From Bryoerythrophyllum caledonicum (lineage: Eukaryota > Streptophyta > Bryopsida > Pottiales > Pottiaceae), in assembly GCA_963971425.1 (NCBI GenBank), contig OZ020518.1:7729989-7793988 (forward strand): a DNA stretch of 64,000 nucleotides, read 5' to 3'. This document shows, one piece after another, positions 1,539 through 63,458 of this stretch (its first letter is position 1; every line of letters begins with the position of its first letter). Made by a program: the position numbers and the translations under genes. The notes under the pieces are model-generated. The model worked only from the letters and a program-made list of their open reading frames with translations. It searched no databases and was not told the origin of the DNA.

Positions 1539-1549
1539 CCACCCGAAAG
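1539..1549. repeat. Target-site duplication, left copy (pair at 2349-2359)
   Basis: The 11-mer ccacccgaaag occurs here and again at 2349-2359, bracketing the nested LINE fragment. The host reading (NPPER, then RHI/DTL-type sequence) continues across it as in copy D. Confidence 0.85.
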
Positions 1550-8379: not shown

Positions 8380-8559
8380 CAAAACCACCACATACACTCC
8401 CTAATTGTTAAAAGACATAACAAAGCGGTATGGAAAGTTCGTAAACTAATCACCTCTTACAATAAATCGAGATGTTTTATACTAATGAACGCCGACACTT
8501 TTAATAACAATCCACAAGAAAATATGGTCCCCCCTTGGCTACTCCCATGCTCATGTATG

Positions 8560-8850: not shown

Positions 8851-8997
8851 GATACCTTCAAGATATCCATTGAAACAATTAAAACCTCCTTTATAAACAT
8901 TAACACCATAGCTATTCAATACGCCATGTCCATTCTTCTACATAAACGCAAAATCAAAAACAACCAAGCCCTCCCCGATACACAGGACCCCCCTTAA

Positions 8998-9275
8998 ATT
9001 CTCCCCCCGCCTTGATTTATCAGGACTAGTTGGTTTTGAGGTTTTTGACTACTTGCTTGATTTGTGGTTGGTTCGTTGACTAGTTGATTGGTTAGTGATT
9101 GGTTGGTTGGTTGGTTTGTGGTTCTTTGGCTACTTGTTACATAGTGTCTACCCTCGAGAGAGGGAAGTAGTTTTAGTTTACTTATTCCTTGTCCAGGGGG
9201 CATGGTCTTAGTAGTGGAACGAACAGACACTTTACTCACGCCGGCCCCTTTGGAGACCGGCGTTCTTCTTTTTAG
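8998..9275 (+). other. 3' UTR of copy A with terminal hairpin and TTC tail
   Basis: After the stop comes a ggtt/ttgg-rich stretch, then the family 3' motif (catagtgtctaccctcg at about 9140-9156, cttagtagtggaacgaacag at 9208-9227). A perfect 7-bp stem follows, ACGCCGG (9238-9244) / CCGGCGT (9257-9263) with a 12-nt loop, directly followed by ttcttcttt. A stem at the extreme 3' end followed by a short microsatellite is the arrangement recognised by stringent LINE reverse transcriptases. Confidence 0.75.
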
Positions 9276-13868: not shown

Positions 13869-18605
<4,737 letters not shown>

Positions 18606-22661: not shown

Positions 22662-22859
22662 ATATAGATCACTGTTGAGTTCCAGACTGTTATAAGGATT
22701 ACTGCAGTAATGAAGACCCTAGGTAATTATTGCTCATTTATAAGATACATAATTTATTTTTTAAATGTGTGCAAAGGAATTTAACACTAGAGACGAACCT
22801 AGATTGGAGCTAGAAGGTGTGAAGCAATGTGTAACTTGGAGATGACATTGTAAACTTAC

Positions 22860-23147
22860 AACCACAAAATCCACTAAATACATACAAATCATTTTTTTCC
22901 TACAAATTTTATTTTAATAATACTTAAGCACTTACAAGATTAATTTGACAAAAAATACGATACACTTCGGTTTGAGGTGGTCTCCTCATATTAGTACTCA
23001 AAACATACGCATTTTTAGGCAATGTAACTAAATCTTAATATCATTTAACATGTTCCCTTATTTACAAATTAATAAATTTAACAATAAATCTCTCTTATCT
23101 TGATAAAAATTCCACATATACATGTAATTTTATCCAGAAGATGTTAT
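22860..23147 (+). mobile_element. Eroded relic (copy E) of the LINE APE region
   Basis: Aligns by eye with 2763-3050 of copy A: acaaaatccactaaatacat, cagactac-like and ttttaataatacttaagca, ttagtactcaaaacatacgc, ttaggcaatgtaac, ccacatatacatgtaatttt and ccagaagatg occur in the same order. It has drifted to high A/T and lost all coding frame. It ends where copy B is inserted. Confidence 0.7.
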
Positions 23148-29486: not shown

Positions 29487-29674
29487 ATGGAATCTCCAAC
29501 AACCGCAGCCTCATCCTCAAACAACAAAAACAGCTTTGATGTGGAAGTAACTCCAATGAAACAGTTAGAATTGGAGGTGGCTACTTCTCCTTCCAAAGAT
29601 CTTGAGGTACATTTGGTCAAACATTCGAGACCACCTTTTTGGCTTGGATTTGATGCTTTGAATGCGCTTGGATA
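29487..29674 (+). pseudogene. Probable displaced N-terminus of ORF1, copy C
   Basis: Reads MESPTTAASSSNNKNSF...FWLGFDALNALG and then a stop (TAA). The main ORF1 frame begins 40 bp later in a different phase. In copy D the words FWLGF directly precede the ORF1 start (about 50945-50960), so this piece is likely the same protein split by a frameshift. Confidence 0.45.
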
Positions 29675-29716
29675 AATCAACGAGGTCCTAGAGTCAAACA
29701 TCTTAGTGTGAGCAAA

Positions 29717-31108
29717 ATGGAATTGGAAGGGATGAGTAATGAAGAAGCCCTAGAGGCTTGTGAAGCAATAGTGTCATTTCCCTATGTCTCTCAAAAGCAT
29801 TGGCCAAACAATCGTGGTGATGGAAAAGAGGGGAATCACCTAAACCTGATCCAACTTCCATGTGATGTGGAAGTGGACGAACATGGCTTTTCCCTCGACT
29901 ACCATATTGCCATTTGTTTTGAGATTGGTGATACAATTGTCTCCAAAGACATGGTCTTAGGATTGGTGAAGGAAAGACTTGCAAAAATGCAAATTCACCT
30001 TGGAGATAGGATGGCTCAATCTATTGCTATCATGTGTCTCCACAAGTCGGATAATTGGAGTAGTATAGTGAAAATACATCTAAAAACCCCTGAGGTAGAT
30101 GCATGTGCCCTACTGTCAGGTATTCGCCCTTTCATCCTCAAATTGGATGAAACCTTGTTGGTTAGGGGAAAGGTTTGCAAATCCTTTGACTCTATAGCTG
30201 TCCAAAGACTTCTATCAGTGAGAATTAGTAGTCCCTCACTCAAAAATAAGAAATGGTTTGATGTCGTCTTCGAGATTGTGAATGAGGGATTTAAACGAGG
30301 GGTAGATTATGAAGTAACAACAGTCACAAAGAAAGAATTGGCGGACTTTGCATGGATGAAAGCACCAACACCGGAGGAGGCTAACAAGATAAAAGAGCAA
30401 AAGATTTATGCGGATAGTGAGGTGTTTGTCCCAATCTTTGTTAAAAGAGGACAAATGACGGAGGATGAGAAAGCCAAAAATAATGCGGTAGTTCTCATTG
30501 CACAAAATCTAAACAAAACCAAGTCAACCTATGAGTTAGAGGTAGCCATCAAACAATTCATGGGAGAAGAGAATGTTGTTAGCGTCTACTTTAGACTCGA
30601 GAACAACAAACACGTGGGATCTTGTAATGTGGAGTATAAAAACGCTGTAGTTTACAAGAAATACCTAAATAAATGTGAAAAGATGCTAAACAAGTATGTG
30701 GAGTTTATTTCTCACCCTCGTAGCATGGACGGGAAACTAAAACCTAGCCCGGAGGAGCTCACAAGATTAGGATTCTTGGATATCAATACTGCGATTGCCA
30801 ATACGGTAGAAACCCTAAACATCACCTCGGGAGACACCTACAGTAAAAAGGATATTGACACACTCATAGATGTTGCGGTAGCCAAGAGTTCCAAAGCCAC
30901 TATGGGGGAAATATGTCAAGAAATGGATAGCCTCAAGGATGCGATTGTAACGGAGGCAAAGACATATGTAGATACAGTGCATGTGGAGCAAATCAAAAAC
31001 ACCAGCCCACTTCGAGCGGAGATAAGGCTTCTACAAAATCAAATGAAGTCTTCCATGATGATAATGGATCAACTCCTCCCAGCAGACTGTATGGACCAAA
31101 CAAACTAG
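29717..31108 (+). CDS. ORF1 of the LINE family: RRM-like RNA-binding protein (copy C)
   Basis: 463 residues from the ATG at 29717. About 80 more codons of the original N-terminus probably lie at 29487-29672 in another frame (FWLGF is shared with copy D). The middle reads as an RRM-like fold: strand AVVLIAQNLN, helix STYELEVAIKQFM, strand VVSVYFRLE, RNP1-like strand HVGSCNVEY, helix VVYKKYLNKCEKML, strand YVEFISHPR. A long helical tail (EICQEMDSLKDAIVTEAKTY) may form a coiled coil. LINE ORF1 proteins of this build bind element RNA and oligomerise. It ends 1,195 bp before the 2A motif of the same-strand ORF2; copy D has the same arrangement. The N-terminal 200 residues are unassigned. Confidence 0.65.
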   Translation: MELEGMSNEEALEACEAIVSFPYVSQKHWPNNRGDGKEGNHLNLIQLPCDVEVDEHGFSLDYHIAICFEIGDTIVSKDMVLGLVKERLAKMQIHLGDRMAQSIAIMCLHKSDNWSSIVKIHLKTPEVDACALLSGIRPFILKLDETLLVRGKVCKSFDSIAVQRLLSVRISSPSLKNKKWFDVVFEIVNEGFKRGVDYEVTTVTKKELADFAWMKAPTPEEANKIKEQKIYADSEVFVPIFVKRGQMTEDEKAKNNAVVLIAQNLNKTKSTYELEVAIKQFMGEENVVSVYFRLENNKHVGSCNVEYKNAVVYKKYLNKCEKMLNKYVEFISHPRSMDGKLKPSPEELTRLGFLDINTAIANTVETLNITSGDTYSKKDIDTLIDVAVAKSSKATMGEICQEMDSLKDAIVTEAKTYVDTVHVEQIKNTSPLRAEIRLLQNQMKSSMMIMDQLLPADCMDQTN

Positions 31109-32302
31109 TTTGGACAAATGGAACGGCGGAGTTTATAAAACAAAAAACATCCAAAAAAATATTTAAAAATACTAAAACAACCAAAAATATCTACATAGTA
31201 TTTATAAATACTATAAATATTTTGGAAACAACTTTCAACTCTATGAATATATATATATAGACACATTTATACCTTTATGTGCCTTTATTTTCTCACCTCC
31301 TACTCATATATTTTTACGTCTACCATTCACTACTCTATTTTTTATTCCTTTATTTTTTATTATTTTTCTCTTATTTTTTAGAAAAAAATAAATTTATCGC
31401 TTATTTTGTAGACTTGCATTTTTTACTCTCCTATTTTTCAAACTTCTTCTTAAATCCTTACTAGTTATTCTCTCACTATTTTACATTGCTCTTTTTATTC
31501 TTTTACTTTCTCACATTCTACTTCTTCATTTAGTTTTCTACATTCTTAATGCTCTACTCTATTATTTTTTACTTTATAATCTTTTACTTCCCTCCATACT
31601 TTGCCGTTTAAATATTACCTTCTCTTTTCCTCTTCCTTTATTTTGCCCCATTTTTATAATCTCTCTAGACATCTTTAAAAATTCAACTACTATTTCTCCC
31701 CCTTGCGATATTTCACTTTCCCCTCCTCTGCTTCCTATTCTCTCACTTTCAACCCCTCTATTTTTTACCCCTTTACCTGATACTCCTTTACTTTTCATCT
31801 CCTTATCCTTTACACTTTCTACAATATTTAATCACCCAGAAACTACTCCTCAACTCTACAATCTTCTAGTTACTACCTCTTTTCCTTTACCTTTTGCTAT
31901 TGAAAGTCTCAACACTTTATTTTATACTTATTTATTGTATACTCCCATACTTCAAGTTACCCTACCTCCTACTCTCGACCCAGATATACCTATACAGTAT
32001 CCTTTAATAGCTTTATCTCTTTTTATTGTAATCCTGCTACTATCTATTGTCTCTCTTTCCACTCTTCTACTCTCTAAAACTCTCCTCCATCATTGTAAAC
32101 AAGTATTCTCGACCCCTTTTCAAAAAATTCTACTAAAACCCACTATAGCCCTAAACCAGAACTCAAAATTCCCCACAAATCCCATAACCCATCTTATAAG
32201 TGGCAGAAAGACACATACCCACCCCCACACATCCAATCCAAAACAAAACAAAGGGAAACTCCAATCCAAAATAGAGACATATCATTCCTTTTACTAATTA
32301 GT
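31109..32302 (+). other. Inter-ORF spacer of copy C
   Basis: A strongly pyrimidine-rich tract (31260-32100) turns A/C-rich before the 2A motif. An open frame 31935-32297 encodes a hydrophobic, membrane-helix-like stretch (PLIALSLFIVILLLSIVSLS) and ends one nucleotide out of phase with the 2A frame (stop at 32295). If that frame once joined the 2A, it would give a leader peptide with a signal-anchor-like segment. Confidence 0.5.
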
Positions 32303-32329
32303 GGAGACATTAACCCAAACCCAGGACCT
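32303..32329 (+). other. 2A-like motif, copy C
   Basis: Reads LLLISGDINPNPGP and is followed by a methionine codon at 32330 (MPN). The core D-I-x-x-N-P-G-P is intact; only the Glu is changed to Asn. It is in the frame of the following ORF2 N-terminus. Confidence 0.8.
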
Positions 32330-35300
32330 ATGCCAAACATTCTACAAAATCACCCCTCAACACACAGAAATGGGCAAACAACTATTTTATCCCTAACACA
32401 ATTAAATTCCAACCAGAATACCAACATCTAGCAAAATTGTATTCACCATTCTTGAAACCCTCCCACATACTCCATGATGAATATAACAACATACACCCCC
32501 ATCTATTGCAATACATCCAAACGTTACAGGCCTTCCCAACTTCTCACATTATATACGCCATCATAGTAACAATACACCCATCTATAGAATCGTGTAACTT
32601 GTTGATTTCCTCAAACACCCAAAACAACAACTCTGAGATAGATCATAGACTAGACAACAATCCTGCTACTCAAGCTATCCACTCTAAATAATCCTCCAGA
32701 ACGACACATAGAAATAGAACACAAATAATACACCCAATTTCTAAAAAATAACCATAACATTATATACCCAACAGACTCAATTCACCAAAACATATACGAA
32801 AGTATCCACAAGCATAATACATTAGCAACTCCCCATACAATAAAAAACGAATTCCCATTCTTCCCAGATGAACTAATTACAGCAGCACTAAAATGTCTAG
32901 ATCACATCCCGGCCTACTCCCACCCACCAGATAGAGCGTATACTCCACCAATACGACAACCACCAACATATAACCAACACAAAACACATTTCATAACATG
33001 GAATGCAGCAATATTAAACACTACACTACCTAGTATCCAAAACTTGATAACAGAACTTCAAACAATACCAGCGTTCATTTTCATACAAGAGACTAAAATC
33101 ACCGCAACAAAATCTATAAAATATATTGAAAGGCTTTTCCCAGACTACAAACTCATCTTCAATAATACACTTAGTCTTACTAGATGTATGCAACAACGGA
33201 GACCATACACCCCCGCCCATGGAGGGCTACTAACACTAATCAACAAATCGTATGCATTCACCGGCAACATAACAAAAATTCCCACCCCCGCCAACATATC
33301 ACCATATTTACAAATAATAAAAGTCACCAACAATCCACTTCAACCTTGGCTAATTATTCATTTATACATGCCCTCACACCCAGAAGATACTAATCTCATA
33401 CACAAAATACAAACAAACATCACAAGCCAAATTGTAAATCATCCAAATCACACGCATATGTTAGTTGGCGACTTCAACAGAGATGTCGCCCTCATTGGAT
33501 GCACCTTTGGAAATAATTTAACACCTCTTGATGATGTAGATTACCAATGGAAAACTTACATAGATACCCTACAACTGACTTACATTCATACAAACACAAA
33601 CTTCTCAAGACAAGGGGGACACAATTATACAGAAACAAGTCTACTAGATGGTTTTTACTTAAACACCAACAATCATCAACAATACTCATGCAAAATTAAT
33701 ATTGACAACAACTTAAACTCTGATCATTACCCACTTCAACTACAAATTCCCAACAACGCATTAATCAGTAGAACACCACAACCAACAAACAATAACACCA
33801 TAAGAATATTGAACCCTATCCCGGCTGACAATATGGAAGCATTCTACAGTACATATTTTGAAAATAACTCATCCACAATAGAACAGCTTACTGACACCTT
33901 AGAACATAACACAAATCTCACAGACAGACAATGGCTAGAAGCATGTGATACATTAGATATACTAACACAAAGAATCTCCTCAACACTGGAACAAACATGC
34001 AAAGCCGAACCGTCACCCCAACTTACCCCCAGAGCAGCACAACAAAGAGGCTTCTTACCACAAAAACTAGCAAAACCCTGGAAGAAACATCTATCAACAT
34101 ATCACCTCATCCGAAAAACCATACGCATAGTAAAAAACAATCCAAATTGGCGGAACCATCCTATCTTCAATAACATCCAAATTCACAATCATGTAGATAT
34201 ACCTCAACCTCCTACAGACGATACCCTTATAGAATCGTGGATCTCCAATATAGCACAAATTGCAAAAACAGCCAACAATCTAGCCCGCAAAATCACAACC
34301 AAATACAACAAAGAAAGCATCAAAAAAGCCATTATAAAATACTAGCAACTACACAATAAATGCCCCAAAAAAATCAATAAAAAAGTCTTTAGAGACAGCA
34401 TAATACACGCCCTAGACTGCACATTGACCTACATGGTAACATCCTTACAAATCCAGAAGAAATTGCTAATGAAATATATAGACAACAATCACAAATAAAC
34501 AAACCTACAATACCCATATGCCACAATCAAAACAAACACCCATCAACATGTACTTGTAGTGTTAGGCAATATCCATGGCACGACCTCGATGGGTTTGTAC
34601 TAGAAAAGAGAGGTGAACCTAACATCCCTCTACACACATACTTTACAAAAGAAACATATGATATGTGTCTAAAAAAACTAAGTAGCAATAAAGCCCCCGG
34701 ACCCAATCGTATCCCAAATTCCAAATTAAAAAATATGCCGGCAAAATTCCAAAAACTTTTATACCTCTTCTTCATACATTGCTATAGACAAAAACAAATT
34801 CCCGAACTATGGAAAACCAATCTATCCATACTACTCTATAAAAAAGGAAACCCCTTCATACTAACAAACCATCGCCCCATAGCTCTAGCCAATACCATTT
34901 ACAAATTATACACCAGCACATTAACATCAATATTATCTTCATACGGAGAAAAACACAACATATTACATGACAGCCAAGAGGGATTTAGAGCCGAGCGCAG
35001 TACCGCCCGACAAATACAAACACTAATACCTGCTCTAGAAGATGCCAAACTCACTAACCAAGATATATATATCTTGTGTAGACTTCAAAAATGCATTTGG
35101 CTAAATAGATCATGCAAGATTACTTGCTCTTATGAGTGACCTTGGATACCCAGAAGACGCAGTTACTCTAGTCGGAAATATCTACTCACGCTCTACAACC
35201 ACATTTACTGGTGAACATTTCGGTAAAACTCACCCAATCCCTATACAAAGAGGCACAATTCAAGGTGATACCCTCAGTCCATATATTTTCATAATATTTC

Positions 35301-37200
35301 TAGAACCTTTATTAAGATGGCTCCAAAGAGGAAATAATGGATACACACTCAGCATGTCAAAAACCACCATAAACTCTGTTGCGTACGCAGACGACTTAGC
35401 AGCCCTATCCAATAAACTAAAATCCTTACAAATCCAAATAAATAGAATAGATAAATATTGTAAATGGACAGGAATGGATGTTGGAGTACCAAAATGCGCA
35501 GTCACTAGATGTCCAAACAAATCAAAAATGAATCCCATGACCTTCAAAGCACAAATTCAAGCCACAAACATTAACTACAGAAATCAACCTATCCCGGTGT
35601 TACATCAAAACGAAGCATATATATACTTAGGAGCCCAAATGGTACCCTCATTGAAATGGAAAATCCAGACTCATGTTACTACTACAAAACTCAACAATCA
35701 ATGCCAAGCACTAACAAACTGCCTTGCTACTATGAGACAAAAAATCAACATCTTAGATACATTCATACGACCAGGAATTGCTTGTAGCTTCTACATTGTA
35801 CCATATTCAATGACAACAATCAAAAAACTTGACAAAAAAATAATAGCAGCACAAAAAACAATCTGTGGACTCCCAAAATGCACATCAAACATAATAATAC
35901 AACTCCCACATAACAATTTTGGACTAGAAGCATTTTCTTTAAAAAAACGACTATCTAAGATGTATTGGAGAACAACTACTAAACACTTTAAATGACAAAG
36001 GAAGACTGGGTAAAATATACAACGGTCTATTACAATACATATTAGCTAAATTTGGAGGTGCAGAATACTTACCTAGAATTAAAAGCCAAGATTGCTACAG
36101 ATCTCCCATTACCATAACGTTATATCTGCTAAAAATAGAAGGAAATACACATCTAAAGAGCACCATAGGTAGTTTCCTTACAACACCTGCGCCTATAGAA
36201 TGTATGTGGAGAAGCGAAGCCCCAACACTTCCACACCTAATTGAGCAAACATCTATGAAATTACTACAAGTACTATTCACCGCAAACATCACAACACTTA
36301 GCCAAATCACCCTACCAAATGGCTCACATTTAATGAACGAGACTGAATTCCACAAATATCATTTCAAACCCACAAGACTAATAAAAAGTGCACTAAACCT
36401 AGCGAAATAGCTCTTTTGTCTCCCTGAGTGTCTTGACACATGCCCCCGCCCTTGCAACGAACACCCAAATCATTGCACACTTATAGAAATATATATCTGC
36501 CCCAACAACAATAATATCCCCCATATTCCCAACTCACCTATCCATCCACCAGACTTACCCCGCCCACGCCATTCAAAACCGCCTCCATATATACTAAAAA
36601 ACCCCACAACATACCCACTGAATGCAATAGTACAACATAAACAACGTACATACTACGACACTAATGACATCAAAATAGAAAAAACTTCATACCTTTGCCA
36701 ATGGAAAACCCAAGAAAATACTTATAGTCAATGGCACACACACACAACCCTATTTCCATGGCATGACCCTAATACCGCATCCCACAACATAACATCCCTA
36801 AAAAAATACTATCAAGAGAAAGCTGATAAATTCCATCATAACATCATACAAGCACACCACCCACAAACTCAACGTAGAGACACAAGATTGGTCACACCCC
36901 CCACACAAATCCCTTTAGCAAAATATCTATCACCGAATGTAATCCACAAAAAGACATTACCACACAACAACATACCATTCAAATTCAACGAAACGAAGCA
37001 TATATCTATGAAAATGATGGAAAATACCTAATAACTATCCCCACGGTAAGGCTCGAATGGCTCTGAAACCAATATCACCAAGCACTAAATACCCCACACA
37101 ATTTAGAACCGACAACCCAACCATTTGAAACTGAAGTTGTCTAGCTTTATCAAAGATACAAATACAGAATACCTAAAACGGACCCCCTTATACTAACACA
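32330..37200 (+). pseudogene. ORF2 of copy C, APE and RT parts
   Basis: Pieces: 32437-32691 (N-terminal region, SHIIYAIIVTIHPSIESCN), 33044-34345 (433 codons; APE with QETK, GDFNRD, LLDGFY, NSDHYP, then linker), 34663-35139 and 35132-35995 (RT: NHRPIALANTIYK, QEGFRAERSTARQ, GDTLSPYIF, catalytic YADD). The RT is split by a frameshift within an (AT) run near 35070 and by a TAA where copy A has serine (35102-35104). It fades through the linker until 37200. RNase H, CCHC and RLE are absent by truncation. Confidence 0.85.
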
Positions 37201-37215
37201 CTACACCATACCAAC

Positions 37216-37600
37216 GGAACTATGTGGGACTCCGTTCCCCCATGTTGCCGGAAGTTAACCTTAAATTCCGGCTAAAATTAAAAAAATTAGTTAATTAGTT
37301 ACTATAGTGTGTGCTAGAATGCACCCTATAATGTTGATGTATAAATAAAGTCGGATGGGCCAGACTGCAAACCCTAATAAAGCCTAAAACTGTTAAAAGC
37401 GGGGCCGAAGTAGTTACTGGAATTCCGGGGCAGTTAGTTATCCGAAACCGTCAGCCGGAACCGTCGCCATCAACTGTCATCATGACTCCCCACCAACGGC
37501 CGGACTACTTAAGGCTGGGGTTCGGGGGGAAAACTCTTTCTTCTCCATTTCTTTCTCGCGTACTGGGGTTTCGCGTTAGGGGACAAGATAATATTGATGC
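37216..37600 (+). repeat. Possible LTR or other element end abutting copy C
   Basis: Begins tgtgggactccgttccccc, holds a TATA-like tataaata (37340-37347), AATAAA-like signals and a GC-rich end (gtactggggtttcgcg). This looks like an LTR or promoter-bearing element. No partner LTR, primer-binding site or target duplication was identified, so the call is tentative. Confidence 0.3.
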
Positions 37601-50968: not shown

Positions 50969-52363
50969 ATGGAAAAGCTTGCTGTAGACGTGGGACATGA
51001 GCCCTTGTTCAGCGGGGAGAGCGTTAGAGACATGATGACTTGTGGAGTACCCAAAGATGAAGCAGAGGAGGCCCTTGGAGCGGTTGTGGCCTATCTAAGG
51101 ATTCCACAACTCTTATATTCTTTGGTGCGCAACGACAACATCGAGGGCCAACACTGCAACCTTACACATGTACCCTTTGATATTCCTACACACCCTATCA
51201 CTGGACTCTCTTACGACTTCCATGTAGCAATTCACTTCGAATAGCAACCGCATCCTATGCATCATGGTGATGTGAAGAGACTAGCATTGGCTAGGCTTGA
51301 ACACATGAAAATACCATTAGGCACCAACCTGATGGATCCCATGGCCGTTTTATGCAAAGGGGTCAAAAAAGAGGGACAGAAGGGTGTTTGGTCAGGTATC
51401 ATCAAACTACATCTCTTTAGGCTAGAGGTAGATGCTATTGCTCTTCTACGAGGCACACGATACTTCATCCTACATCTGGACCCTATAGGACAAGCCTCCT
51501 TAGGGAAAGTGTGCAAAACCTTCCATGTGGTGGCATGTAAGAATTTATCAATGCGAATCAAGAGTGAGACTCTCCAAGGCGTTGCTGCTCACACCCTTCT
51601 CCAAGATGTAGTGACAAATAGTTTCTTGAGAAACTTGGAATATGAGGTTACAGATGTGTAGAAGGTATAGGAAGAGTCACATGCGTTCATAGTTGCTCCA
51701 ACCCCACTACAGGCCAAAAAAATTGAGCTCGACCAGATCACCACACACCACGAGATGATACCAGCTCGGACTAGCAGCTCTAGAACCCTCTCACCTGCTG
51801 ATAGAGCCAAGAAGGACGCACTCACGGTTACCCTATCCCAACTTCCCATCTTCATGAGTGTGGTTGAAACCACGGATGTCATTCACCAAACCGTTGATGC
51901 CAAAAATGTAATCTCCCTATGGTTCCACAGGCAACAGAGAGGAAAACATAATGGCAGTGCCAATGTGCAATTCCCTAACCCCATCATCTACCGCAAATTC
52001 CTACACAAGACCTTCACTATAGGGAGACATCAAGTAGAGATTTCCCCTCACCGCCGTAGCCTCGAAGGTGATGATCCACCCTCCACATACCTATTGGAGA
52101 AATGGGGCTTCAATGACATCAACAAAGCACTTGTAAACTCGGTGGCGTCCCTACAAGTTACTCCCACTCCCACAGGCATTACTTGGTCCGAAATGACCTC
52201 TATCATAGACGCAGGTAAGAAGAGGTTGCGCCAAGAGCTCTCTACTCTACGAGAGGACATCATCAAGGACACAAGGGCTTACACAGACAACCGCATCAAT
52301 GAGTTACATGCGAAACTCTCAAATGAGGAGCAGTTAATGGCCTCTGCACTCATGGCCATGTAA
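50969..52363 (+). pseudogene. ORF1 of copy D, RRM-like, interrupted by two TAG codons
   Basis: One frame of 464 codons broken only by TAG at 51242-51244 and 51659-51661. It is homologous to ORF1 of copy C throughout (EALGAVVAYL / EACEAIVSFP, YDFHVAIHFE / LDYHIAICFE, LEVDAIALLRGTRYFILHLD). The RRM-like block is DALTVTLSQLPIF, helix, NVISLWFHRQ, NGSANVQFPN, IIYRKFLHKT, VEISPHRRSL. A helical tail (KKRLRQELSTLREDIIKD) follows. Divergence from copy C is high, so C and D represent different subfamilies. It ends 1,180 bp before the 2A motif. Confidence 0.75.
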
Positions 52364-53543
52364 TAGAACACAGGTTCGCGACCACCAACTACCCTAGCTA
52401 TAGAGGACCACTCAAACGTGGATTGACCAAGGACCCCGGCCAAAGATATCATCAATCTCAAGACACAAGGGTGAACAAGGCTTCCACTCCTCACCACCAC
52501 CTTTCTCCATCATTGCCATGCACCTCCTCAAACACTGTAAGTGTGATCCCCTTTAATGCGCTATCTATCCTTCACTACAAGTTGCTAGGATATGATCACT
52601 TGACTATTACACTAGCACTCACTACCCCCCCTCTAGCTACACACTACTCTCCCTTTGATTTGCCCTCATTAGTGCTATGCCACCCCTTCCTTCTTCTTGT
52701 AGCTCACTCTTGCTTCACTACTGTCTTCATAATCACTTCTCTAGTTGTCTCCTACCATAGATTTACTCCATATCTTTACTACAACACACACACACAGCTA
52801 GATACAAGACTCGAAGACCATATGATGGAAGGTTGTATGAGAATTGGAGTTTAATCCTACATATACATAAATGTTGTCACCACATATACCATTAGGGTAT
52901 GAATATCTCTTGGAAAAACACATATGGAATACACACAATCAATACTCACACAGAACTACCATGTAAGAAAATTACAAACACACCTCATACATCTATACAC
53001 AACACAATAACCATACTCCCACAAACAACATCATATACCACTTACTACTCCACATTTATGCACATCTTTTTGCACATAGAGCACAGAACCACAAACAGAA
53101 ATACACACGCCACAATCTCACCCTTAACCAAAAAGTATAGCCCCGTTACAACTCCCATCCCACTCACCCTAATACCAAAAATTACATTTATGACACATAT
53201 AGGGCAAAGCATTCAAGAAACCAAAACAAACACACATACAAAATCACTGGAACCCGTCACAACTACAAACACATACTTCCAAATAACTACAAGGCCAGAG
53301 TTAGTCCCAAACAAGATAAAAAAATACAAACCATACCACAAATACACCTAAAATCACAATGAATCAATCCATCCCTCCTTCCGTCACACCCAGAGTCACC
53401 ATAACACCCACACATACCCGGATAAACAAAAATAATAAAACCAAAAATATTAAAACAAGAAAAACCTAAAATACAGACATAAATCAATAAACCACAAACA
53501 ACAAATTAAACCTTCACATTATAAAAACTTATTACTACTAAGT
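52364..53543 (+). other. Inter-ORF spacer of copy D
   Basis: Pyrimidine-rich with a hydrophobic frame (52423-52854, FLLLVAHSCFTTVFIITSLV), then A/C-rich. The frame 52899-53351 is in phase with the 2A motif but is separated from it by stops. The composition switch matches the spacer of copy C. Confidence 0.5.
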
Positions 53544-53570
53544 GGAGATATAGAAACCAATCCAGGACCC
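53544..53570 (+). other. 2A-like motif, copy D
   Basis: Reads LLLLSGDIETNPGP followed by Met (53571, MPSVLKRHP). It fits the full 2A consensus D(V/I)ExNPGP with the preferred upstream leucines and SG. This is the best-preserved example in the window. Confidence 0.88.
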
Positions 53571-56500
53571 ATGCCTAGTGTATTAAAAAGACACCCGACA
53601 ACACATAAAAAAATGCCAAAATATACTTCATACCAAACACCATAAAACTACAACCGGAATACAAACACATTGCTCAGATATTTGCACCGCTTTTAAAAAC
53701 CACAAATATACTACATCAACTACACAACACAAAATACCCAAATATTGCCCAATACATACAACAAAAAAATGCACATCCATCAACACATATTCTATATGCC
53801 CTAGTAATTACCACCCACCCAAACATAGACGAATGTAACTGCCTTTTAAATCTACAAAACCCAAATATATCTACATGGACTAACACACTATTACAAACCT
53901 TATCAAACTTACAAAATCCACCCAAAAGACACATTCGTACCCCACATCCTTATACAAAATTTCTTGAAGAAAACCTAAGTATCATAAAACACAAAAACTC
54001 AATACATAAAGAATTCTACGACCTATTACACAGTCAAACCATACCACCTTCACACAACACAATCAAACAAAAATTTCCTTACCTCCCTAACAAACTAATT
54101 AATGAGTCACTAAGATGTTTTGACCCCATACCAGAATATACCCATCCACCCCCTCCACCCTCTCACATCCCTCGACATAACCAAAATATCAACTCAAATA
54201 ATGAAAACACAATCATAATTACATGGAATGCTTCATCTCTAAACACCGCTCTCCCAATCTTACAAGCTCTGGTCACACATACAAACACACCACCAGCCGT
54301 CATAGGTATACAAGAAATAAAAATATTGGCCACAAAATCTACAAAATACATACAAAACATATTTCAAGACTACAAACTTATTTTCAACAACACGCATGCA
54401 TTAACAAGATGCATCCAACAACGTAGACCGTACACACCGGGCCATGGTGGCCTCCTTATGTTAATACACAAAAAATACGCTTTCCCGGGCAACATCAAAA
54501 AAATCCCTACCCCAATGCACATATCTCCCTACCTCCAAATAATTAAAATTGCTAATCAACCACTACAATCATGGCTAATCTTTCACATGTGTATGCCCTC
54601 CCACCCCAAAGATACTAGATTTATTATAGAAATACAAAACAATACTACATCCCAAATAAATAATAACCCTAATAACAATTACATGTTATGTGGAGATTTT
54701 AATAGAGACATAGCTCTAATTGGTCGACAAAACGGAAACCATAACACCCCCCTCAAACCATAGACTATCAATGGCGCCACTTCATAGAAAACCTAAATTT
54801 CACCTACATAAAAACTAACACACAATACTCCAGACAAGGCGGATATAACTACAGTGATTGGAGGCTAATAGATGGTTTTTATATAAACACAGGTAATACT
54901 TCACAGTACACCTCTACCACAAACAAAGACATTATACTCAACTCGGATCACTCGCATGTACAACTTCACATCCCAAATAACATATTAATTAGCCGTACCT
55001 CCATAGTCACAAACAATGTTACTATACAAATACTAAATCCCATCCCAAAAGATAACTTAGAAAAATTCAACACAACGTTCTTTAAAAAAAACTCTATACA
55101 AATTTACTCTATCATAAACACCCTTGAAAATAATAACCAACTCTCTCAAACACATTGGAATAAAGCATGTCATGATTTAGACATACTCATAAATAAAATC
55201 TCCGAAACACTCAAACAAACTTGCCAAGCTCCACCCATATCTCAAATGACACAACGCACTTCCCAACAAGGTGATTATCTCCCCCGCAAACTTTCTAAGA
55301 TATGGAAACAACACCTAACTACATACCATATAATACGAAAAATTATAAGAATTGTAAAAAATAACCCTCAATGGCGTAATCACCCCATATGCAACGAATT
55401 ACTAACTTTGCACCATATCCAAATTCCTGCCCCACCTCCCCCGGACCTACTCCATGATACGTGGTTAAACAACATTGCACTAATCGCTAAAAACGCCAAT
55501 ATACAAGCCCCGAAAGTAACTACAAAATACACCCAAGATAATATTGAAAAAGCCATCTCAAAATATAGACAACTATATGAAACTAGCTCGAAGAAAATAA
55601 ATAGAAAAGTTTAAAAAAAACTAGAATCTCGCCACTAGATTGCATCATTGACCAATACAATAACATCCTAACCAACCCGGAAGACATCGCAAATGAAATA
55701 TTCAACCAACAGACAAAAAACAATAGACCCACAGTACCAACATGCAACTACCAAACACAACACCCAATCGAATACACATGTGCAATACGACAGTATCCAT
55801 GGCATGATCTAGATGGATTTACCTTAGACAAACGAGGTGAACCTGAAATTCCATTCCATACATACTTCAACAGAGTCATATACGACACATGTCTCCAAAA
55901 CCTCAGAAATAACAAAGCCCCAGGGCCAGACTGTATACCTAATTCAATACTTAAAAACTTGCCCCCAAGATTTCATAAATTACTATTCCTATTCTTATTC
56001 ACTGCTACAAACAAAAACAAATACCAACCTCATGGAAAACAAGTACAACAATTTTACTATACAAAAAAAGAGATCCTTCACTACTATCCAATCATAGACC
56101 AATTGCACTAGCCAACACAATATATAAACTCTACACCAGCACACTTACCTCAATACTCTCCTCATATGGTGAAAAGTTTAAAATCCTACACGATAGTCAA
56201 GAAGGATTTAGAGCATAAAGGAGTACCTCAAGACAAATACAAACAATAATTGCGGCACTTGAAGACGCACGACTCACAAATCAAGACATATATGTCTTAT
56301 ATATTGACTTTAAAAATGCCTTTGGTTCTATAGACCACGCTCGACTACTAGCGATAATGACTGACATTGGGTATCCAAAAGATGCAACTGCACTAGTTGG
56401 AAACATCTACTCTCAATCATCTATCCACTACATCAGTGAGCACTTTGGAAGGACTAAGCCTATCCCCATTCATAGAGGAACTATACAAGGAGATACCCTC

Positions 56501-59500
56501 AGTCCATACCTATTCATTATATTTTTAGAACCACTACTTAGATGGCTAGAGAGAGGTAATAATGGATACACCTTTGGTACATCACAATTACCATAACCTT
56601 GCCGCCTACGCTAAAGACCTTGCTATCCTAACTAACAAAATCAAATCACTACAAACACAAATTACAAAAATAGATAGATATTGTAAATGGACTGGTATGG
56701 AGGTAGGCGTTTCAAAATGCGCAACTACCGGTTGTCCAAACAATTCCAAAATGAATCCAACTGCATTCAAAGCCCTAATGCAAGCCTCCAACATCAATTA
56801 CCGTGGCCAACCAATCCCCATATTACACCAAAATGAATCGTATGTATACCTAGGCACAAATCTAGTTCCCTCTCTAAAATGGAAAATCCAAATCCACAAT
56901 ACAACCACAAAACTCATTAAACAATGCAAAGAATTGACAACATGTCCGGCCACTATGAAACAAAGAATTAAAATGGTTGACACCGTAATACGCCCAGGTG
57001 TAGCATACAGCTTCTACGCTGTACCATACTCTATGCCAGCTATCAAAAAGCTTGATCAAAAGATAATAGCCATACAAAAAACCATTTGTGGTATGCCAAA
57101 ATGTATGCCAAACGCAATAACCCAACTCCCACATAACCTATTTGGACTTGAAGCTTTCTCCCTTAAAAATGCCTACCTCAAATGTATAGGAGAACAACCA
57201 CAAAATGCTTTAAATGACAAAGGTAGGCTCGGAAAAATATACTATGGGCTTACTCATTATATTCTTGCACAATATGGTGGTGCCGAAAATATACTTAGAA
57301 TTAAAAAAACGGATTGTACAAGATCACCAATAACTCGTACACTTTTCTTATTAAAACATGTAGCTAAAATTCACCTTAAGAGTACACTTCCAAACTTCCT
57401 CTCTGATCTAACACCATTAGAAGTATTATGGAGCCAAGAAACACAAAACCACAATACACTAAACGCCCAACTCTCCCAAAAATTGTTACATAAACTCCTC
57501 TCAAAAAATATTTTTGAATTAAAATAAATTACTCTACCAAACGGCACACACATCATGAATAATGAAGACTTCAAAACCTTCCACTTCTCCCCATCCAAAC
57601 TAATCAAAAGTGCCCTCAATATTGCCAAACAACTTTTCTGCCATCCAACTTGCCCCACCACATGTGATACCCCTTGCAACACACACCCATACTCTTACAT
57701 ACTTCAAGACTCATTCATCACCATCAATAACAACATCCTTCCAAGAATTACCCTCCCAACCCTTCACACCCCTACCACCCACATCCCCCAACATACATCC
57801 CCAAAAATCCCACCATATACCCCATTAATAACATCATAAGCCATGAACAAATACAACATATAGATACCAACAATATACAAAATACCTTTACAAGATATCT
57901 ATGTCAATGGCAACACAATAACAACACATTCAACAAATGGCTTCCTCAAAGAAACCTCTTTCCAAGACACGACAATAATACCTCTACATATAACACCGAA
58001 AAATTAAAAACATACTATCAACAAAGTAAAAATAAATTCTACTCAGAAATCATCCAAGCCCACCACCCCCAAGAACAATTAGAAGATTCAAGATCCATAA
58101 CCCCACCCATTATCATTCCATTTCTAAACATTCATACAACGGAATGCAACCCTGAAAACGACATTCTCACATCCTCGAACACCATTAAGATAGAGAACAA
58201 TCAAGCCCATTTATATGAAGAAAATGGCCAACATTTACACACTATTCCCACTACTAGACTCCAATGGCTATGGAACCAATACAATTTGAAACTACAAACT
58301 CCTATAAACATCGAACCAATAACCCAACCATTTGAAACCGAACTAGTTTGGCTATACCAAAGATATAAATATCGCATTCCAAAAAATAACCCCCTCAAAA
58401 GTGCACAATACACAATATCCACACCTATGCTCGACTCTTTAATCTCATCGTTCAATATCAAACAATCATACTTTTCTTCCCCCGTCACATGTTCCACCAA
58501 ACTACAAAAATTCTACTCCCCATTTGAAAGAGACAAAATATTCGGCTCCCTTGGAAAAGATTTTGACCACAAATGGATTGGTAATGGTATAGCACACCCT
58601 CACAATGAAGCGGAAACACAACAAGCAATACACTGGGCACGACTTGCTGCCAAAAATTACCCACACCACACATCTACAATCATTATCACCCCAGACAAAA
58701 ACTGGTACCAAAACTTTAACCAACAAACAAGTCCATTCTTAGACTCTCATATCATTGCCTTATTCGAAGCAGACTCAATACCATATGAAGAACCCACTAT
58801 TCCACCTGAACTAAAAAAGCCTCGGATAGAACCATCCTCATTACAAATAATATGTGTCCACCACCAAAATCAAACCCTTGGCACCCCAGAACAACTAGAA
58901 GAACTTACCTCCATAGCAAATTCTCTAAACATACACTGCTTATATACAAAAATGGCCCCACCAACGCCTATACAAACAATAGTCCACAAAAACAAAAAAA
59001 TGGTCTGAACTAAATTATAGTAACAATACTCTAGACTAACTTTAAACACCCCGACCCCTCCCAGAGTACCAAACTACCACCTCACCAAAATTTGACCCTG
59101 CATATAGCTACTATACTGATGGCTACTTCAAAGCACCAGAACAAATTAGCCCGGGTAACTGGCGCAGAGAAAAAGCCGATTATCGAATATACAACTCTAC
59201 GAAAGAAATCAAATTAGCCAAAAGATTGCATGGACTACAAAATATCCTCAGAGCAGAATTCATGGCCATCCACAAAACACTGGAAATCGTCACAACAAAA
59301 TACAACAATGAACCAGCGCACATATTCACAAACTGCATCAACGCACTGTACTTATTAAACACCCAAATAACACATCCTACCCTCCATAATAGCCACCCCG
59401 ACCAAATATTACTAGAATCAATGGTCGAAATGATACTAAAACGAAGACATCACAACCCTCCACAAAGTTTGAGCCTATACCAATATTGACGGCAACGAAC

Positions 59501-60565
59501 AAGCGGATAAACTAGCAGAAGAAGGCTGTGAAAAATCTCACAAAAATGCCAAAGACCCACACGAATATGCCATACCACTCCATACTACTTCCAAAAAGCA
59601 GATTGGCCCTCAAAAGAAGACACCCCTGATAAAGGCCCAGTTTGATTCTTGAACAAATACCTCAAAAAACAAGACCTATACAACAACCTTGACACAATCT
59701 CAGAAAACTTCCCTAACATAGAAAAGTGGACTAACAACAACAACATAGATAATGAACTCTCGACAATTTTTTGGAAAAACCCCATATCACCGACTCACAA
59801 ATAACATGCCTTATCAAATTCCGTACCGGACAATACATGGGAAATGCCCGAAAACAACTCTTCTTTGGAATAGAAAGATTCCCATCCATAACATGCCCCA
59901 TATGCACTTCCACGGACCCTAACACATGGCTACATGTCCTTAAATGTCAAAACCACCATATACACTCTCTAATTGTCAAAAGACATAACGAAGCTGTATG
60001 GGAAATCCATAAATTAATCACCTCCCATAACAAATCAAGATGTTTTATTCTCATGAACGCCGGAACCTTTAATAAAAATCCACAAGAAAATACGGTGCCA
60101 CCATGGCTACTCCCATGTACATGTGAAACCCAACGATGCCACTGTAATGCTCGACTTAAACCGGACATACTCTGCGTTAGAGGCCTACCATACAACGACT
60201 TCCCACCGGACCACATAAATCAAGACTACACCATTCAATTCATCGAATTTACATATTGTAATGATAGATTCTCCCCAGAAACAATTGAAAACAAAATCAA
60301 TAAATACCAACCCCTTATTGATGACATCACTGCCCTTGGATGGAAAGTGGACCCTCTTATTGTACTCACTGCCGGCGCTTGCGCCACCACCTTTATCCCA
60401 TCTATAAAAACCCTTGAAGATACCTTCAAAACTCCTATTGATTCAATTATAAACACTTTCAAAAATATTAATATTATTGCCATACAACATGCTATGTCCA
60501 TCCTTCTACATAAACGCAAAATTAAAAACAACCAAGCCCTTCCTGATACACAAGACCCCCTATGA
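53571..60565 (+). pseudogene. ORF2 polyprotein of copy D (about 2,330 codons, frameshifted)
   Basis: Domain order: N-terminal region (53571-54200); APE (54220-54980; QEIK, GDFNRD near 54692, NSDHSH); RT (55880-56900) with the catalytic box mutated to YAKD at 56608-56619; thumb and linker; methyltransferase-like block with IAHPH at 58589-58603; RNase H (59090-59530) with DGYF and FTNCINAL, so a catalytic Asp is lost; a 264-codon intact frame 59771-60565 with CCHC (59894-59947, C-x2-C-x9-H-x3-C), KPD (60158-60166) and IEF (Glu 60245-60247). Frameshifts near 53610, 54763, 55614, 56000 and 59010 break it elsewhere. Confidence 0.85.
59771..60565 (+). CDS. Intact C-terminal module of ORF2, copy D: CCHC knuckle plus restriction-like endonuclease
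   Basis: 264 codons without interruption. The RTG block (IKFRTGQYMGNARKQLFFGI) is followed by the zinc knuckle, RHNEAVWEIHKLI, a second cluster CTCETQRCHC, LKPDILCVRG, IQFIEFTYCND, NKINKYQPLIDD and GWKVDPLIVLTAG. This is the layout of the nuclease domain that ends R2- and Dualen-type LINE proteins. It is probably only a surviving part of the dead ORF2, not a separate gene; the ATG at 59771 is incidental. Confidence 0.6.
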   Translation: MEKPHITDSQITCLIKFRTGQYMGNARKQLFFGIERFPSITCPICTSTDPNTWLHVLKCQNHHIHSLIVKRHNEAVWEIHKLITSHNKSRCFILMNAGTFNKNPQENTVPPWLLPCTCETQRCHCNARLKPDILCVRGLPYNDFPPDHINQDYTIQFIEFTYCNDRFSPETIENKINKYQPLIDDITALGWKVDPLIVLTAGACATTFIPSIKTLEDTFKTPIDSIINTFKNINIIAIQHAMSILLHKRKIKNNQALPDTQDPL

Positions 60566-60857
60566 AGTTACCACTTTACTTTATTCTAGTCCCTGGCATG
60601 CAAAACACACCCTCTTCTCCATCTTTCTCTCCTCTCCATCTCTCTCCTCCCTCCCTCCCTCCCTCCTCCCTTGTTATTCTTTGATTGGTTGGTTTTGGGG
60701 TTTTTTGGCTACTTATTACATAGTGTCTACCCTCGAAAGGGGAAAGTAGTTCCAGCTTACTAATTCCCTGCCCGGTGGGCATGGTCTTAGTAGTGGAACG
60801 AACAGACACTTCATTCATGCCGGTTTATTCCCTTCAGAGACTGGCGTTCTTCTTCTG
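60566..60857 (+). other. 3' UTR of copy D with terminal hairpin
   Basis: Contains a CT-rich run (ccctccctccctcc), the family motif catagtgtctaccctcgaaa (60719-60738) and cttagtagtggaacgaacag (60786-60805). A stem follows, ATGCCGG (60817-60823) / CTGGCGT (60841-60847), with G-T wobble replacing two Watson-Crick pairs of copy A, then ttcttcttct. The change of pairs with stem retention supports a selected structure. Confidence 0.7.
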
Positions 60858-63458
60858 ACTGCACATATTAAAAGATTATTGTGTTTGAAGTAGAAAAAAT
60901 GGTTCCTTTTCATTCCTGTGTTGAGAGGATTAGCAGACTTAGACTTCACTTGGTATCAAAGTTTTGCACTACATAAGGTCTAAATTTTATATCATCATGT
61001 TGATCATGATATTATCACCTTGTACACCAATTTTAAGAGGTAGAAAAAGGGTGTAGCATATTCAAAAAAATTGTGCAAGGAGTGGAGGTTCAAAAAGTGC
61101 CAATTCATGTTTTAAATTTTTGGGAACAAACTATTTTTTAGAATGATAATTTGAATGGTCAATAAAAAGGTTTAGAGCACGTCTTGGAAAAAAAATAAAA
61201 AATAAATGAAAAATATGAAGATCTCTAAGTTTTATGTGGAATAGAAGAAGTCTTTTTCGTTCCTTGCCTGACAATGTGTGGCAATGTGTAAACATCTTTG
61301 ACTTGGAATTAAATGCATTTTTCACTAAAGACAAGAGATGTTTTTTGACAATATGAAAGGAAATAATATTACCTGCTGCTATTGAAAATCTCAAATTTAC
61401 TAGAGTGTCCTAGCAAAAGTTTTTTGGAGTTGGCCAACATGCCTGCAATCCACAGTTTTCCCTTTAAGATGACATAACTTTTTTTCTATCAGTCCAATCA
61501 GAATAAAAATCATACTCCCACATACCTCTTGTCTTTTTGCATCTCTATTTAGAATTTCAAGAACTGTAAATATAAATTGCAACCACGGGAACGTGCCAAA
61601 GATTTGCAAAAGCCCACCTCGGGAATTTTTTCATTTTGGGGTTAAATAACTTCTAACTAAATTTAACCGTATGAACTATAGATTAACTCTTAAACATCAA
61701 TTGGGAACCATATATATACAGGCACATATTTAACTTTGTAGAATACAAAAAATGTTTGCAAAAATTTAACAAGACCTACACCTTTGGATTGAAGATTCTT
61801 CAACTAACATCTTTCATTTGGACATTTTTTGATCCCATTCAGGTAGACTCAAATAACATCAAACCTCACTCTCAACTCCACATCCTCTTGACTTGCATGC
61901 TTCAGAGGCACACCAAACTCATGAGAGATCCTCCCTGACAAATCATTCTCATGTATTACAAACCATAACGCTCTTACACAAGCTTGAAGAAGAATTTTAG
62001 AGCAAATAAACACTCTCTGCTTATGATCGACCAAATGTGTAAAATGAAATCTCCCAATTTAAAAAACAATAAAACCTAAGAAATAGGACCTGAGAAGAGA
62101 AGTGCGTCTTCTTGGAATTCTTAGATTTGGGATTTTTTGAAGGTAGAAAATTGAGGTTAAAAATTTTAGGTTGGATATTTGGTGCAATCTTACTCTCACT
62201 TCAATTGGAATTTAAATTGTGGTAGGGTTTCGTGTTTGATACATTGCGCTTGTTTTAGGTTTCGATTGCTTTCTATGTGTATGTGAGATCTAGGTATGTG
62301 TGTGTGTGATCTAAGTATGCTTGTGTGTGTGTAATCTAAGTATGCTTGTGTGTGTGTAATCTAAGTATGCTTGTGTGTGTCTGTGTAATCTAAGTATGTG
62401 TGTGTGTGTATTCTAAGTATGCTTGTGTGTGTATAATCTAAGTATATGTGTATGAAATCTAACACTAAACTTCAACATGTTAAAGGTAACAACAACCAAA
62501 ACTTATTGTTATTGACAATCGGTGTTCAAGTTCATATTTAATGTTTGATACATTAGTAGGGTTATTGACAATTAGTGTTCAAGTTCATAATTAGTGTTAC
62601 AAACACTAAAAATCAACTTTAGTGTAGTACCATTCAACTCTAAAGTACCCTGCCCAACGTGCCCACCATTCCTAAGAAACTGCTTCAAGCAACATGACTT
62701 TTCCATGAAATATCGGATTTAGGAAAAGATTGTAATCCCAAAGACTCAAAGAGCCTTTAGTAAAGTCTATTTACAGTATCCAAAATATCAAAGAGGAATG
62801 TTCTACAGTGACACCATAGGCACCTGCCTAAATCTTGAAAAGTCCCCCAAGGGAAGACTCTTGAGAATTTAGGTTATAAGTCTGAGATGTCTAATGATGT
62901 AAAAGGGTTGTGATAAATCAGGAAAAAGCTTCCCTAACCCAAGAGGTTTCTCATGAATAAAATGAGCAATGTGCACAAATTACATGAAGAACTCCTTCTG
63001 TGCAAACCATCACGAACATGTGAGCCCTGAATCAAGATATCCTGACAACCAAATTGAAAAATCCACATAACACAACTCTTCCTCCTCAAGATGTAGAGTA
63101 CAAAGAGATTACACCCTGGAGCATCTCATCAACAAGTTGAATCCAACACCAAAAGAGCCAGACAAAGTTCAAACCTGAAGATGAAAATCAAACCTTCATG
63201 ATGCTGTGAGCCTTGAATCACAATATTCTGGCAACCAAATTCAGGAATTCACACAACAAGGCTCTCCTCAAGTTCCAGAGAACAAAGAGATCACAACCTT
63301 GAGCATCCCATGACGCAGATTGAGTACAAAGAGATGGAGTAAAAAAGATGGGATCCTTTAAACCCTCAAGGGAGCATTGATTCTGGATGTACACACGATA
63401 GAAGCCCTGTATGTCAATGAAAGGGAAGGAACAAAGCTCCTCACATCAACACGATGTT
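60858..63458. other. Intergenic region with dispersed repeats, no gene recognised
   Basis: 61190-61440 and 62640-62850 are similar to 9590-9820 and 9820-10010, and 61741-61826 to 13261-13345. These look like parts of one long, old repeat family. It also contains the GT-rich minisatellite at 62277-62460. Confidence 0.5.
62277..62460. repeat. GT-rich minisatellite, unit about 30 bp
   Basis: Six or so units of (tg)n followed by atctaagtatgc, for example taatctaagtatgcttgtgt, with variable GT length. Confidence 0.85.

What the first reader, a model, noticed from the sequence alone, without database searches (positions are those of the whole stretch)
53571..60565. LINE family encoding two different endonucleases plus RT and RNase H in one ORF
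The sequence shows APE motifs (QE(T/I)K, GDFN, SDH) at the N-terminus and a CCHC plus KPD...IEF...K..KY nuclease-like module at the C-terminus, with RT and RNase H between, in copies A and D (C has the N-terminal half, B the C-terminal half). Most LINE clades have either APE or RLE. Dualen/RandI, described from green algae, is the known exception. A streptophyte Dualen-like family would extend that clade or define a sister. The clade placement is inference.
Basis: partly seen in the sequence, partly recalled or inferred. Interest (0 to 1): 0.85.

Follow-up and report, generated by a model that had tools for sequence, protein, structure and literature searches.

The report
Two-endonuclease LINE with hidden domains
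The window holds broken copies of a jumping gene from a plant-side organism that carries two different DNA-cutting enzymes, and its protein also contains a chromatin-reading domain and a relative of the enzyme that methylates mRNA caps, which I did not find described for such elements.

Summary
Copies A, B, C and D (plus a fragment) are one non-LTR family whose large ORF encodes APE, RT, RNase H, CCHC and a restriction-like endonuclease (RLE). Both nucleases evolved under purifying selection (D-A dN/dS: APE 0.13, CCHC+RLE 0.08). A profile of RLE relatives ranks an R2 protein first in the PDB. The RT falls in a 60-row clade (89/92) with proteins of Pleodorina and Nannochloris. Of its 57 database members, 40 have RT and RLE; 40 of 40 also have RNase H, and 28 have APE. 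The Dualen/RandI reading is supported; as a kind it is known.

The catalytic motif is NPEY in 14 of 51 rows and lost in this family. (2) A probable chromodomain before it. (3) A 2A-like peptide, a separate ORF1, a structured 3' end with (TTC)n tail, and a target-site duplication. Ten paper searches (listings, some passages) showed no report of (1) or (2) in LINEs. The whole genome could not be searched; functions of extra domains are inferred.

The parts
51020..52360 (+). ORF1 of copy D (broken), unknown family
   Evidence: 32% identity over 465 columns to ORF1 of copy C, E 2e-61; ends about 1.2 kb upstream of ORF2
53526..53570 (+). 2A-like peptide NLLLLSGDIETNPGP at the start of ORF2, copy D
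   Evidence: translation; fits D(V/I)ExNPGP (motif as given in PMC4981915)
54218..55050 (+). APE endonuclease of copy D (frameshift near 54747; limits set by me)
   Evidence: Exo_endo_phos 8e-4; dN/dS 0.13 vs copy A
55620..57000 (+). Reverse transcriptase of copy D (frameshifts; YADD reads YAKD; limits set by me)
   Evidence: RVT_1 3e-13 and 3e-4; dN/dS 0.13 vs A
57794..58057 (+). Probable chromodomain, copy D
58310..58750 (+). PCIF1/CAPAM-type methyltransferase domain, copy D (motif AHPH, predicted catalytically dead)
   Evidence: PF12237 E 2.9e-10, above cut-off; profile of 6 relatives hits only PCIF1 in the PDB, 2e-10; dN/dS 0.12 vs A
59046..59486 (+). RNase H of copy D
   Evidence: homologous to A and B; PF00075 3e-15 in P0001, which aligns with copy A over 97% of the searched region; dN/dS 0.27 vs A
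59894..59947 (+). CCHC zinc knuckle, copy D
   Evidence: residues 47, 50, 60, 64 of the piece: C47, H60 and C64 invariant in alignments A2 and A4; C50 in A4, but P0003 reads Y
59948..60430 (+). Restriction-like endonuclease, copy D (RHN, KPD, IEF, KINKY)
   Evidence: PDB profile: R2 first; motif counts; RLE-only dN/dS 0.06 vs A, 0.11 vs B
60722..60858 (+). 3' UTR RNA structure, terminal hairpin and short TTC tail, copy D
   Evidence: 37 predicted pairs, 5 with a change on both sides in 5 sequences, covariation term slightly unfavourable (+1.64); tail
1146..9275 (+). Copy A ORF2 and 3' end (2A-like at 1146-1190; interrupted by an insertion at 1551-2348)
1551..2348 (-). 3'-end fragment of the family inserted into copy A, (TTC)126 tail, flanked by CCACCCGAAAGA at 1539-1550 and 2349-2360
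   Evidence: the last 3 nt of the left repeat may belong to the AAG array
23146..25941 (-). Copy B: PCIF-like domain to 3' end
22852..23145 (+). Fragment of a fifth copy (APE region) abutting the 3' end of B
   Evidence: tblastn; blastn
29654..31108 (+). ORF1 of copy C, uninterrupted, 484 aa
   Evidence: homology to D
32285..37231 (+). Copy C ORF2 from 2A-like peptide (32285-32329) to part of the PCIF-like domain (truncated)

Best explanation
It is a Dualen/RandI-group LINE (non-LTR retrotransposon). Element order: ORF1; then ORF2 made of 2A-like peptide, N-terminal domain, APE, RT, probable chromodomain, PCIF1/CAPAM-type methyltransferase fold, RNase H, CCHC and RLE; then a structured 3' UTR ending in TTC repeats. 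Shown: the order, homology, selection on the coding domains, a shared 3' end, and a target-site-duplicated insertion of a 3'-end fragment. Inferred: ORF2p binds the 3' structure and integrates by target-primed reverse transcription; APE and RLE probably cut different strands or stages; the chromodomain steers the complex to particular chromatin; the CAPAM-like domain methylates the cap-adjacent adenosine (or other adenines) of element RNA or cDNA in relatives that keep NPEY, and in this family, with the catalytic Asn lost, survives as an RNA/cap- or protein-binding module. The 2A-like peptide would yield ORF2p with and without its N-terminal leader.
For: APE, RT and PCIF1 by Pfam; RNase H. RLE residues: CCHC and KX2KY as described for LINEs in PMC5678591; in the 40 clade relatives PD is kept in 37, its D in 40, the acid in 39, the first K in 28, RH in 38; R2 first in a PDB profile search. 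dN/dS well below 1 in each stretch scored. RT clade with APE+RT+PCIF+RNH+RLE relatives, including Pleodorina P0043 (Volvocaceae); Dualen reported in the volvocine-relative genomes of PMC8226300 (passage) and defined as encoding both APE and RLE in PMC4640811 (passage). PCIF1 the sole PDB hit. Chromodomain by model and VIA-align and by Pfam above cut-off in relative P0023. 2A-like peptides. Shared 3' end. 12-nt target-site duplication.
Confidence: 0.87

Rival explanations
1. An APE-only LINE (for example plant L1-like with RNase H and CCHC) whose C-terminal domain merely resembles a nuclease.
For: CCHC and RNase H also occur in APE-only LINEs (PMC5678591 and PMC5348765 passages); the RLE fold model is weak; 12 of 40 relatives do not show the first K.
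Against: In 40 clade relatives the D of PD is kept in 40, the acid in 39, RH in 38; the domain is under strong selection here, dN/dS 0.06-0.11; R2 ranks first by profile; nearest RT rows carry the RLE.
Confidence: 0.04
2. A chimaera: two nested elements, one APE-type and one RLE-type, read as one.
For: Nested insertions do occur here: a 3'-end fragment inside copy A, and B beside an older fragment.
Against: The same order in copies A and D and in 28 single database proteins with APE, RT, PCIF, RNase H and RLE.
Confidence: 0.01
3. The PCIF1-like domain is a decayed passenger without function in this family.
For: The catalytic NPPF is replaced by AHPH; APPA and SPPG mutants of PCIF1 are used as inactive forms (PMC10544176 passage).
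Against: dN/dS 0.12 (D-A) and 0.20 (D-B) over the domain, and AHPH conserved in P0001, P0003, P0004, P0005 (AHPN in P0002), imply a retained non-catalytic or altered role.
Confidence: 0.2
4. A wholly new LINE group, sister to Dualen, defined by chromodomain plus CAPAM module.
For: The named volvocine reference, P0043, ends 13 residues after its RT match, so its downstream domains were not seen.
Against: P0043 sits in a starred subclade (SH-aLRT 97) with P0015, P0018, P0025 and P0030, of which P0015, P0018 and P0030 have PCIF and RLE. So the module is most simply a property of the Dualen group.
Confidence: 0.1

Closest known systems
Dualen / RandI group of LINEs (green algae; also reported in cryptophytes, PMC12747079 passage)
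   Same: APE and RLE with RT and RNase H; RT clade with a volvocine protein; cysteine-protease matches in some relatives (Josephin in P0025, P0043, P0057; weak OTU in 2, Josephin in 1, Ulp1 in 1 of 16 scanned).
   Different: Focal family: no protease found, probable chromodomain, CAPAM-like domain with lost motif, 2A-like leader, separate ORF1. The Dualen passages I read do not mention a chromodomain or a CAPAM-like domain; the 2005 description was not available.
R2 / RLE LINEs
   Same: CCHC then RHN, PD, acidic residue and KX2KY nuclease at the C-terminus.
   Different: R2 has one ORF with N-terminal zinc finger/Myb (PMC5678591 passage) and, from established knowledge, no APE or RNase H; no site specificity is shown here.
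PCIF1/CAPAM cap m6Am methyltransferase
   Same: Methyltransferase core aligned over about 175 profile positions.
   Different: NPEY instead of NPPF in 14 of 51 rows, lost in the focal family; fused to a LINE.
Chromoviruses (chromodomain LTR retrotransposons)
   Same: Retroelement polyprotein with a chromodomain.
   Different: Non-LTR element; the domain lies after the RT rather than at the integrase end.

Membership tests
Dualen/RandI LINE group | Both APE and RLE in the same element | tested here: met
   definition from PMC4640811 and PMC3636483 passages
Dualen/RandI LINE group | RNase H downstream of the RT | tested here: met
   RNase H in Dualen/RandI per PMC4640811 passage
Dualen/RandI LINE group | RT phylogeny within the group | tested here: met
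   60-row clade 89/92 with Pleodorina P0043 and Nannochloris P0062; no curated Dualen reference was available and the root is unsure
Dualen/RandI LINE group | Cysteine protease domain (recalled from the 2005 description, not read) | tested here: inconclusive
   No Pfam protease match in ORF1 or the ORF2 N-terminal pieces of C and D; present in some relatives
R2-type RLE | CCHC knuckle, CX2-3CX7-8HX4C spacing | tested here: inconclusive
   Focal relative P0001 has CX2CX9HX4C, one residue longer than published; relatives P0013 and P0015 fit (CX2CX7HX4C)
R2-type RLE | PD ... D/E ... KX2KY | tested here: met
   KPD, IEF, KINKY in D; KIDKY in A; KTTKY in P0001; KX2KY per PMC5678591
R2-type RLE | PD-(D/E)XK fold | tested here: inconclusive
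   Low-confidence model; R2 is Foldseek's first hit at E 0.065; viral cap-snatching endonucleases (same superfamily, recalled) fill most VIA rows
PCIF1/CAPAM methyltransferase | Homology over the methyltransferase core | tested here: met
   PF12237; both PDB hits are PCIF1, 2e-10 and 2e-9; Pfam family is a CAPAM-like methyltransferase, not a WW domain (PMC7641849 passage)
PCIF1/CAPAM methyltransferase | Catalytic NPPF motif | tested here: not met
   AHPH in A and D; NPEY in 14 and NPPF in 0 of 51 aligned rows, one of them blank
PCIF1/CAPAM methyltransferase | m6Am activity on capped RNA | not testable with these tools
   needs a biochemical assay
Chromodomain | Three-strand barrel plus C-terminal helix fold | tested here: met
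Chromodomain | Pfam Chromo curated cut-off | tested here: not met
   A 17.6 and D 13.3 bits vs 25.1; met among the segments tried only in relative P0023, 29.9 bits on a 122-aa cut-out
Chromodomain | Aromatic cage for methyl-lysine | not tested
   the W of YLCQW is conserved; the other cage positions were not modelled
2A/StopGo peptide | D(V/I)ExNPGP | tested here: met
   D exact; A has N for D; C has DINPNPGP

The most novel reading that the evidence does not exclude
The whole Dualen group of LINEs carries an ancestral, functional chromatin-reading plus RNA-methyltransferase module (chromodomain and CAPAM-type domain) between RT and RNase H. Members with NPEY write N6-methyl marks on their own capped RNA, or on nascent cDNA, to escape host surveillance or mark templates; members that lost the motif, like this family, keep it as a cap/RNA-binding platform. 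These would be the first LINEs known to me with their own epitranscriptomic enzyme.
Probability: 0.4. Interest if true: 0.82.

Novelty: new variant of a known kind. Interest (0 to 1): 0.66.

Why it matters
Dualen is the intermediate used to argue that APE LINEs arose by replacement of the RLE (PMC4640811 passage). A family with both nucleases under selection makes the question 'what does each nuclease do?' testable in one protein; if the host proves to be a streptophyte, it also extends the group. A CAPAM-type methyltransferase fold in 40 of 40 relatives with RT and RLE, with a probable chromodomain beside it, suggests that a retrotransposon lineage captured RNA-modification and chromatin-reading functions long ago; both could bear on evasion of host sensing and choice of insertion sites.

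Tried and rejected
The whole-genome search (genome search 'own', the same request 17 times) did not complete. Copy number, intact copies and host assembly are therefore unknown. A viral-contig scan with P0001 found no relative. Single-sequence PDB searches with the D RLE and mid pieces gave only chance hits; profiles of relatives were needed. Structure models were weak. Rfam (gathering threshold) and tRNA scans of the window found nothing.

Paper searches (ten). Novelty checks were 12, 65, 91 and 102 (PCIF1, PF12237 or CAPAM, alone or with retrotransposon/transposable element; 16, 11, 3 and 4 papers, all listed) and 92 (chromodomain with LINE; 12 of 120 listed); one search was broader (20 of 313 listed, none with PCIF1). 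I saw listings, and passages of eleven papers by term search; none was read whole. PMC11288735 states that the LINE Celine lacks a chromodomain-like domain; PMC6338049 names chromodomains as accessory domains of LTR elements. The 2005 Dualen paper is not held, so I cannot say it lacks these domains.

Rejected: that the 277-column similarity downstream of A and D (9569-9832, 61171-61446) is part of the element; it lies about 300 nt beyond the TTC tails and is a shared flank or another repeat. The RLE match in P0068 (45 aa) was taken as the zinc knuckle only and P0068 lies outside the clade. P0065 (RT, RNase H, partial RLE, no PCIF) also lies outside and is not among the 40. P0007 (partial) was dropped from the PCIF motif count and from the RT tree. 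RLE motif counts corrected an earlier impression that KX2KY is conserved throughout.
Full report
WHAT IS THERE. Open frames and homology show four copies of one family in the window: A (+, ORF2 from about 1.15 kb), B (-, 25.9-23.15 kb), C (+, ORF2 32.3-37.2 kb) and D (+, ORF2 53.5-60.6 kb), plus an APE fragment at 22.85-23.15 kb. None of the four is intact. Pfam on nine D pieces gives Exo_endo_phos (8e-4, below cut-off), RVT_1 (3e-13) and, unexpectedly, PF12237 'PCIF1_WW' (2.9e-10) between RT and RNase H; the RNase H and RLE pieces of D have no Pfam match by themselves.

SELECTION. Pairwise NG86 dN/dS, D against A: APE 0.13 (277 codons), RT 0.13 (418), PCIF-like 0.12 (159), RNase H 0.27 (133), CCHC+RLE 0.08 (267). 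D against B: PCIF-like 0.20, RNase H 0.26, CCHC+RLE 0.16. The part before the APE is less constrained (0.35, D against A). Chromodomain 0.20 and RLE alone 0.06 against A. Synonymous sites are near saturation: five of seven D-C ratios could not be computed (the other two were 0.13 and 0.10), so the ratios are rough.

RELATIVES. Three database searches gave P0001-P0007 and P0008-P0070. P0001 is an uninterrupted 1289-residue protein from the RT thumb to the RLE, 56% identical to joined copy A over 97% of the searched region. Locally built HMMs gave architectures. Among P0008-P0064, 57 rows carry the RT. Of these, 40 also carry the RLE; 40 of the 40 carry the PCIF-like domain and RNase H; 28 of the 40 carry the APE, and in the other 12 the RT match begins at residue 560 or earlier. 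The 17 rows without RLE end 13-1134 residues after the RT match. The HMMs were trained iteratively on the same set, so they show homology inside the set; the outside anchors are Pfam and the PDB.

RT PLACEMENT. In the careful tree (66 rows, 293 columns) A, C and D are one clade (100/100). They join P0008 (97/73), then P0010, P0032 and P0039 (94/92), inside a 60-row clade that contains Pleodorina P0043 and Nannochloris P0062 (89/92). The six rows outside have long or very long branches and the four chosen outgroup rows are not one side of a branch, so the root is unsure. Pleodorina is in Volvocaceae. PMC8226300 reports Dualen families in all species of its volvocine-relative set (passage); that Pleodorina belongs to the same larger clade is recalled.

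CAPAM-LIKE DOMAIN. A profile of six relatives hits two of 177,635 PDB sequences, both PCIF1: 6irv at 2e-10 and 6irx at 2e-9, aligned over the methyltransferase core including EANPPF against EANPeY. All six match PF12237. PMC7641849 notes that this Pfam family is a CAPAM-like methyltransferase misnamed as a WW domain (passage). Of 51 aligned rows (one blank at this place), 14 read NPEY, 1 NPPP and none NPPF; the five HPH rows are A, P0001, P0003, P0004 and P0005, and D reads AHPH in its translation. PCIF1 mutants NPPF/APPA and SPPG are used as inactive forms (PMC10544176 passage). So in this family the fold is kept and, by prediction, the activity is not.

OTHER ANATOMY. ORF2 begins with a 2A-like peptide in D (DIETNPGP), A (NIETNPGP) and C (DINPNPGP). 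Of eight database rows with NPGP, P0009, P0027, P0029, P0062 and the outside row P0068 have a 2A-like context; P0012, P0041 and P0060 do not. Two-product translation from such N-terminal peptides is described in PMC4981915 (abstract and passages). ORF1 is uninterrupted in C (484 aa) and recognisable in D (32% identity); its Pfam matches are at chance level. The last part of A, B, D and two modules in the insert of A share a predicted RNA structure (37 pairs, 5 with a change on both sides, covariation term slightly unfavourable, +1.64) and, in the four that reach the end, a terminal hairpin followed by TTC repeats. A 798-nt 3'-end fragment with (TTC)126 sits in reverse inside copy A between 12-nt direct repeats CCACCCGAAAGA, of which the last 3 nt on the left may belong to the array. 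This is the footprint expected of target-primed integration.

MECHANISM. Shown: domain content, selection, shared 3' end and the duplicated target. From established knowledge of LINEs: target-primed reverse transcription from a nick. Inferred: division of labour of the two nucleases, chromatin targeting by the chromodomain, RNA methylation by NPEY relatives, and a binding role for the dead domain here.

NOVELTY. The dual-endonuclease kind is known. What I did not find in print is the chromodomain and the CAPAM-like domain in these LINEs, within the ten paper searches named (some lists capped) and a library that lacks the 2005 paper. HOST: a DDM1-like exon (17084-17503, -) matches sequences named DDM1 best in the PDB (7e-43, against 1.5e-28 for INO80 and 2e-24 for lymphoid-specific helicase); DDM1 is the plant name (recalled), so the host is probably on the plant side; 'streptophyte' is not proven.

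Noticed in passing
window 9569-9832 and 61171-61446: A 78% similar stretch lies about 300 nt beyond the TTC tails of both A and D; it could be a shared target repeat, which would hint at site preference.
   Followed up: partly
window 23146-23159 and 22852-23145: Copy B ends with (AAG)4 (its TTC tail read on the + strand) directly against an older APE fragment of the same family on the other strand.
   Followed up: partly
window 10714-12192: Host gene in one open frame: EF-hand mitochondrial carrier (Mito_carr 2e-81, EF-hand).
   Followed up: partly
window 17084-17503 (-): Exon of a DDM1-like SNF2 chromatin remodeller, a repressor of transposons in plants (role recalled).
   Followed up: partly
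window 45490-45981 (-): L7Ae-family protein, by eye SNU13/NHP2L1-like (Pfam Ribosomal_L7Ae 1e-27; SNU13 reading recalled).
   Followed up: no
window 19354-19571: Three 73-bp tandem units that begin with ACCCTAAACC, resembling a plant telomere motif (resemblance recalled).
   Followed up: no
window 715-1158: A 201-bp tandem duplication directly upstream of the 2A-like peptide in copy A; 'KILILSMNTNIKPN' in the translation looks like a decayed copy of the 2A region.
   Followed up: no
P0065: A protein with RT, RNase H and partial RLE matches but no PCIF-like match, just outside the clade: a possible earlier-branching relative.
   Followed up: no
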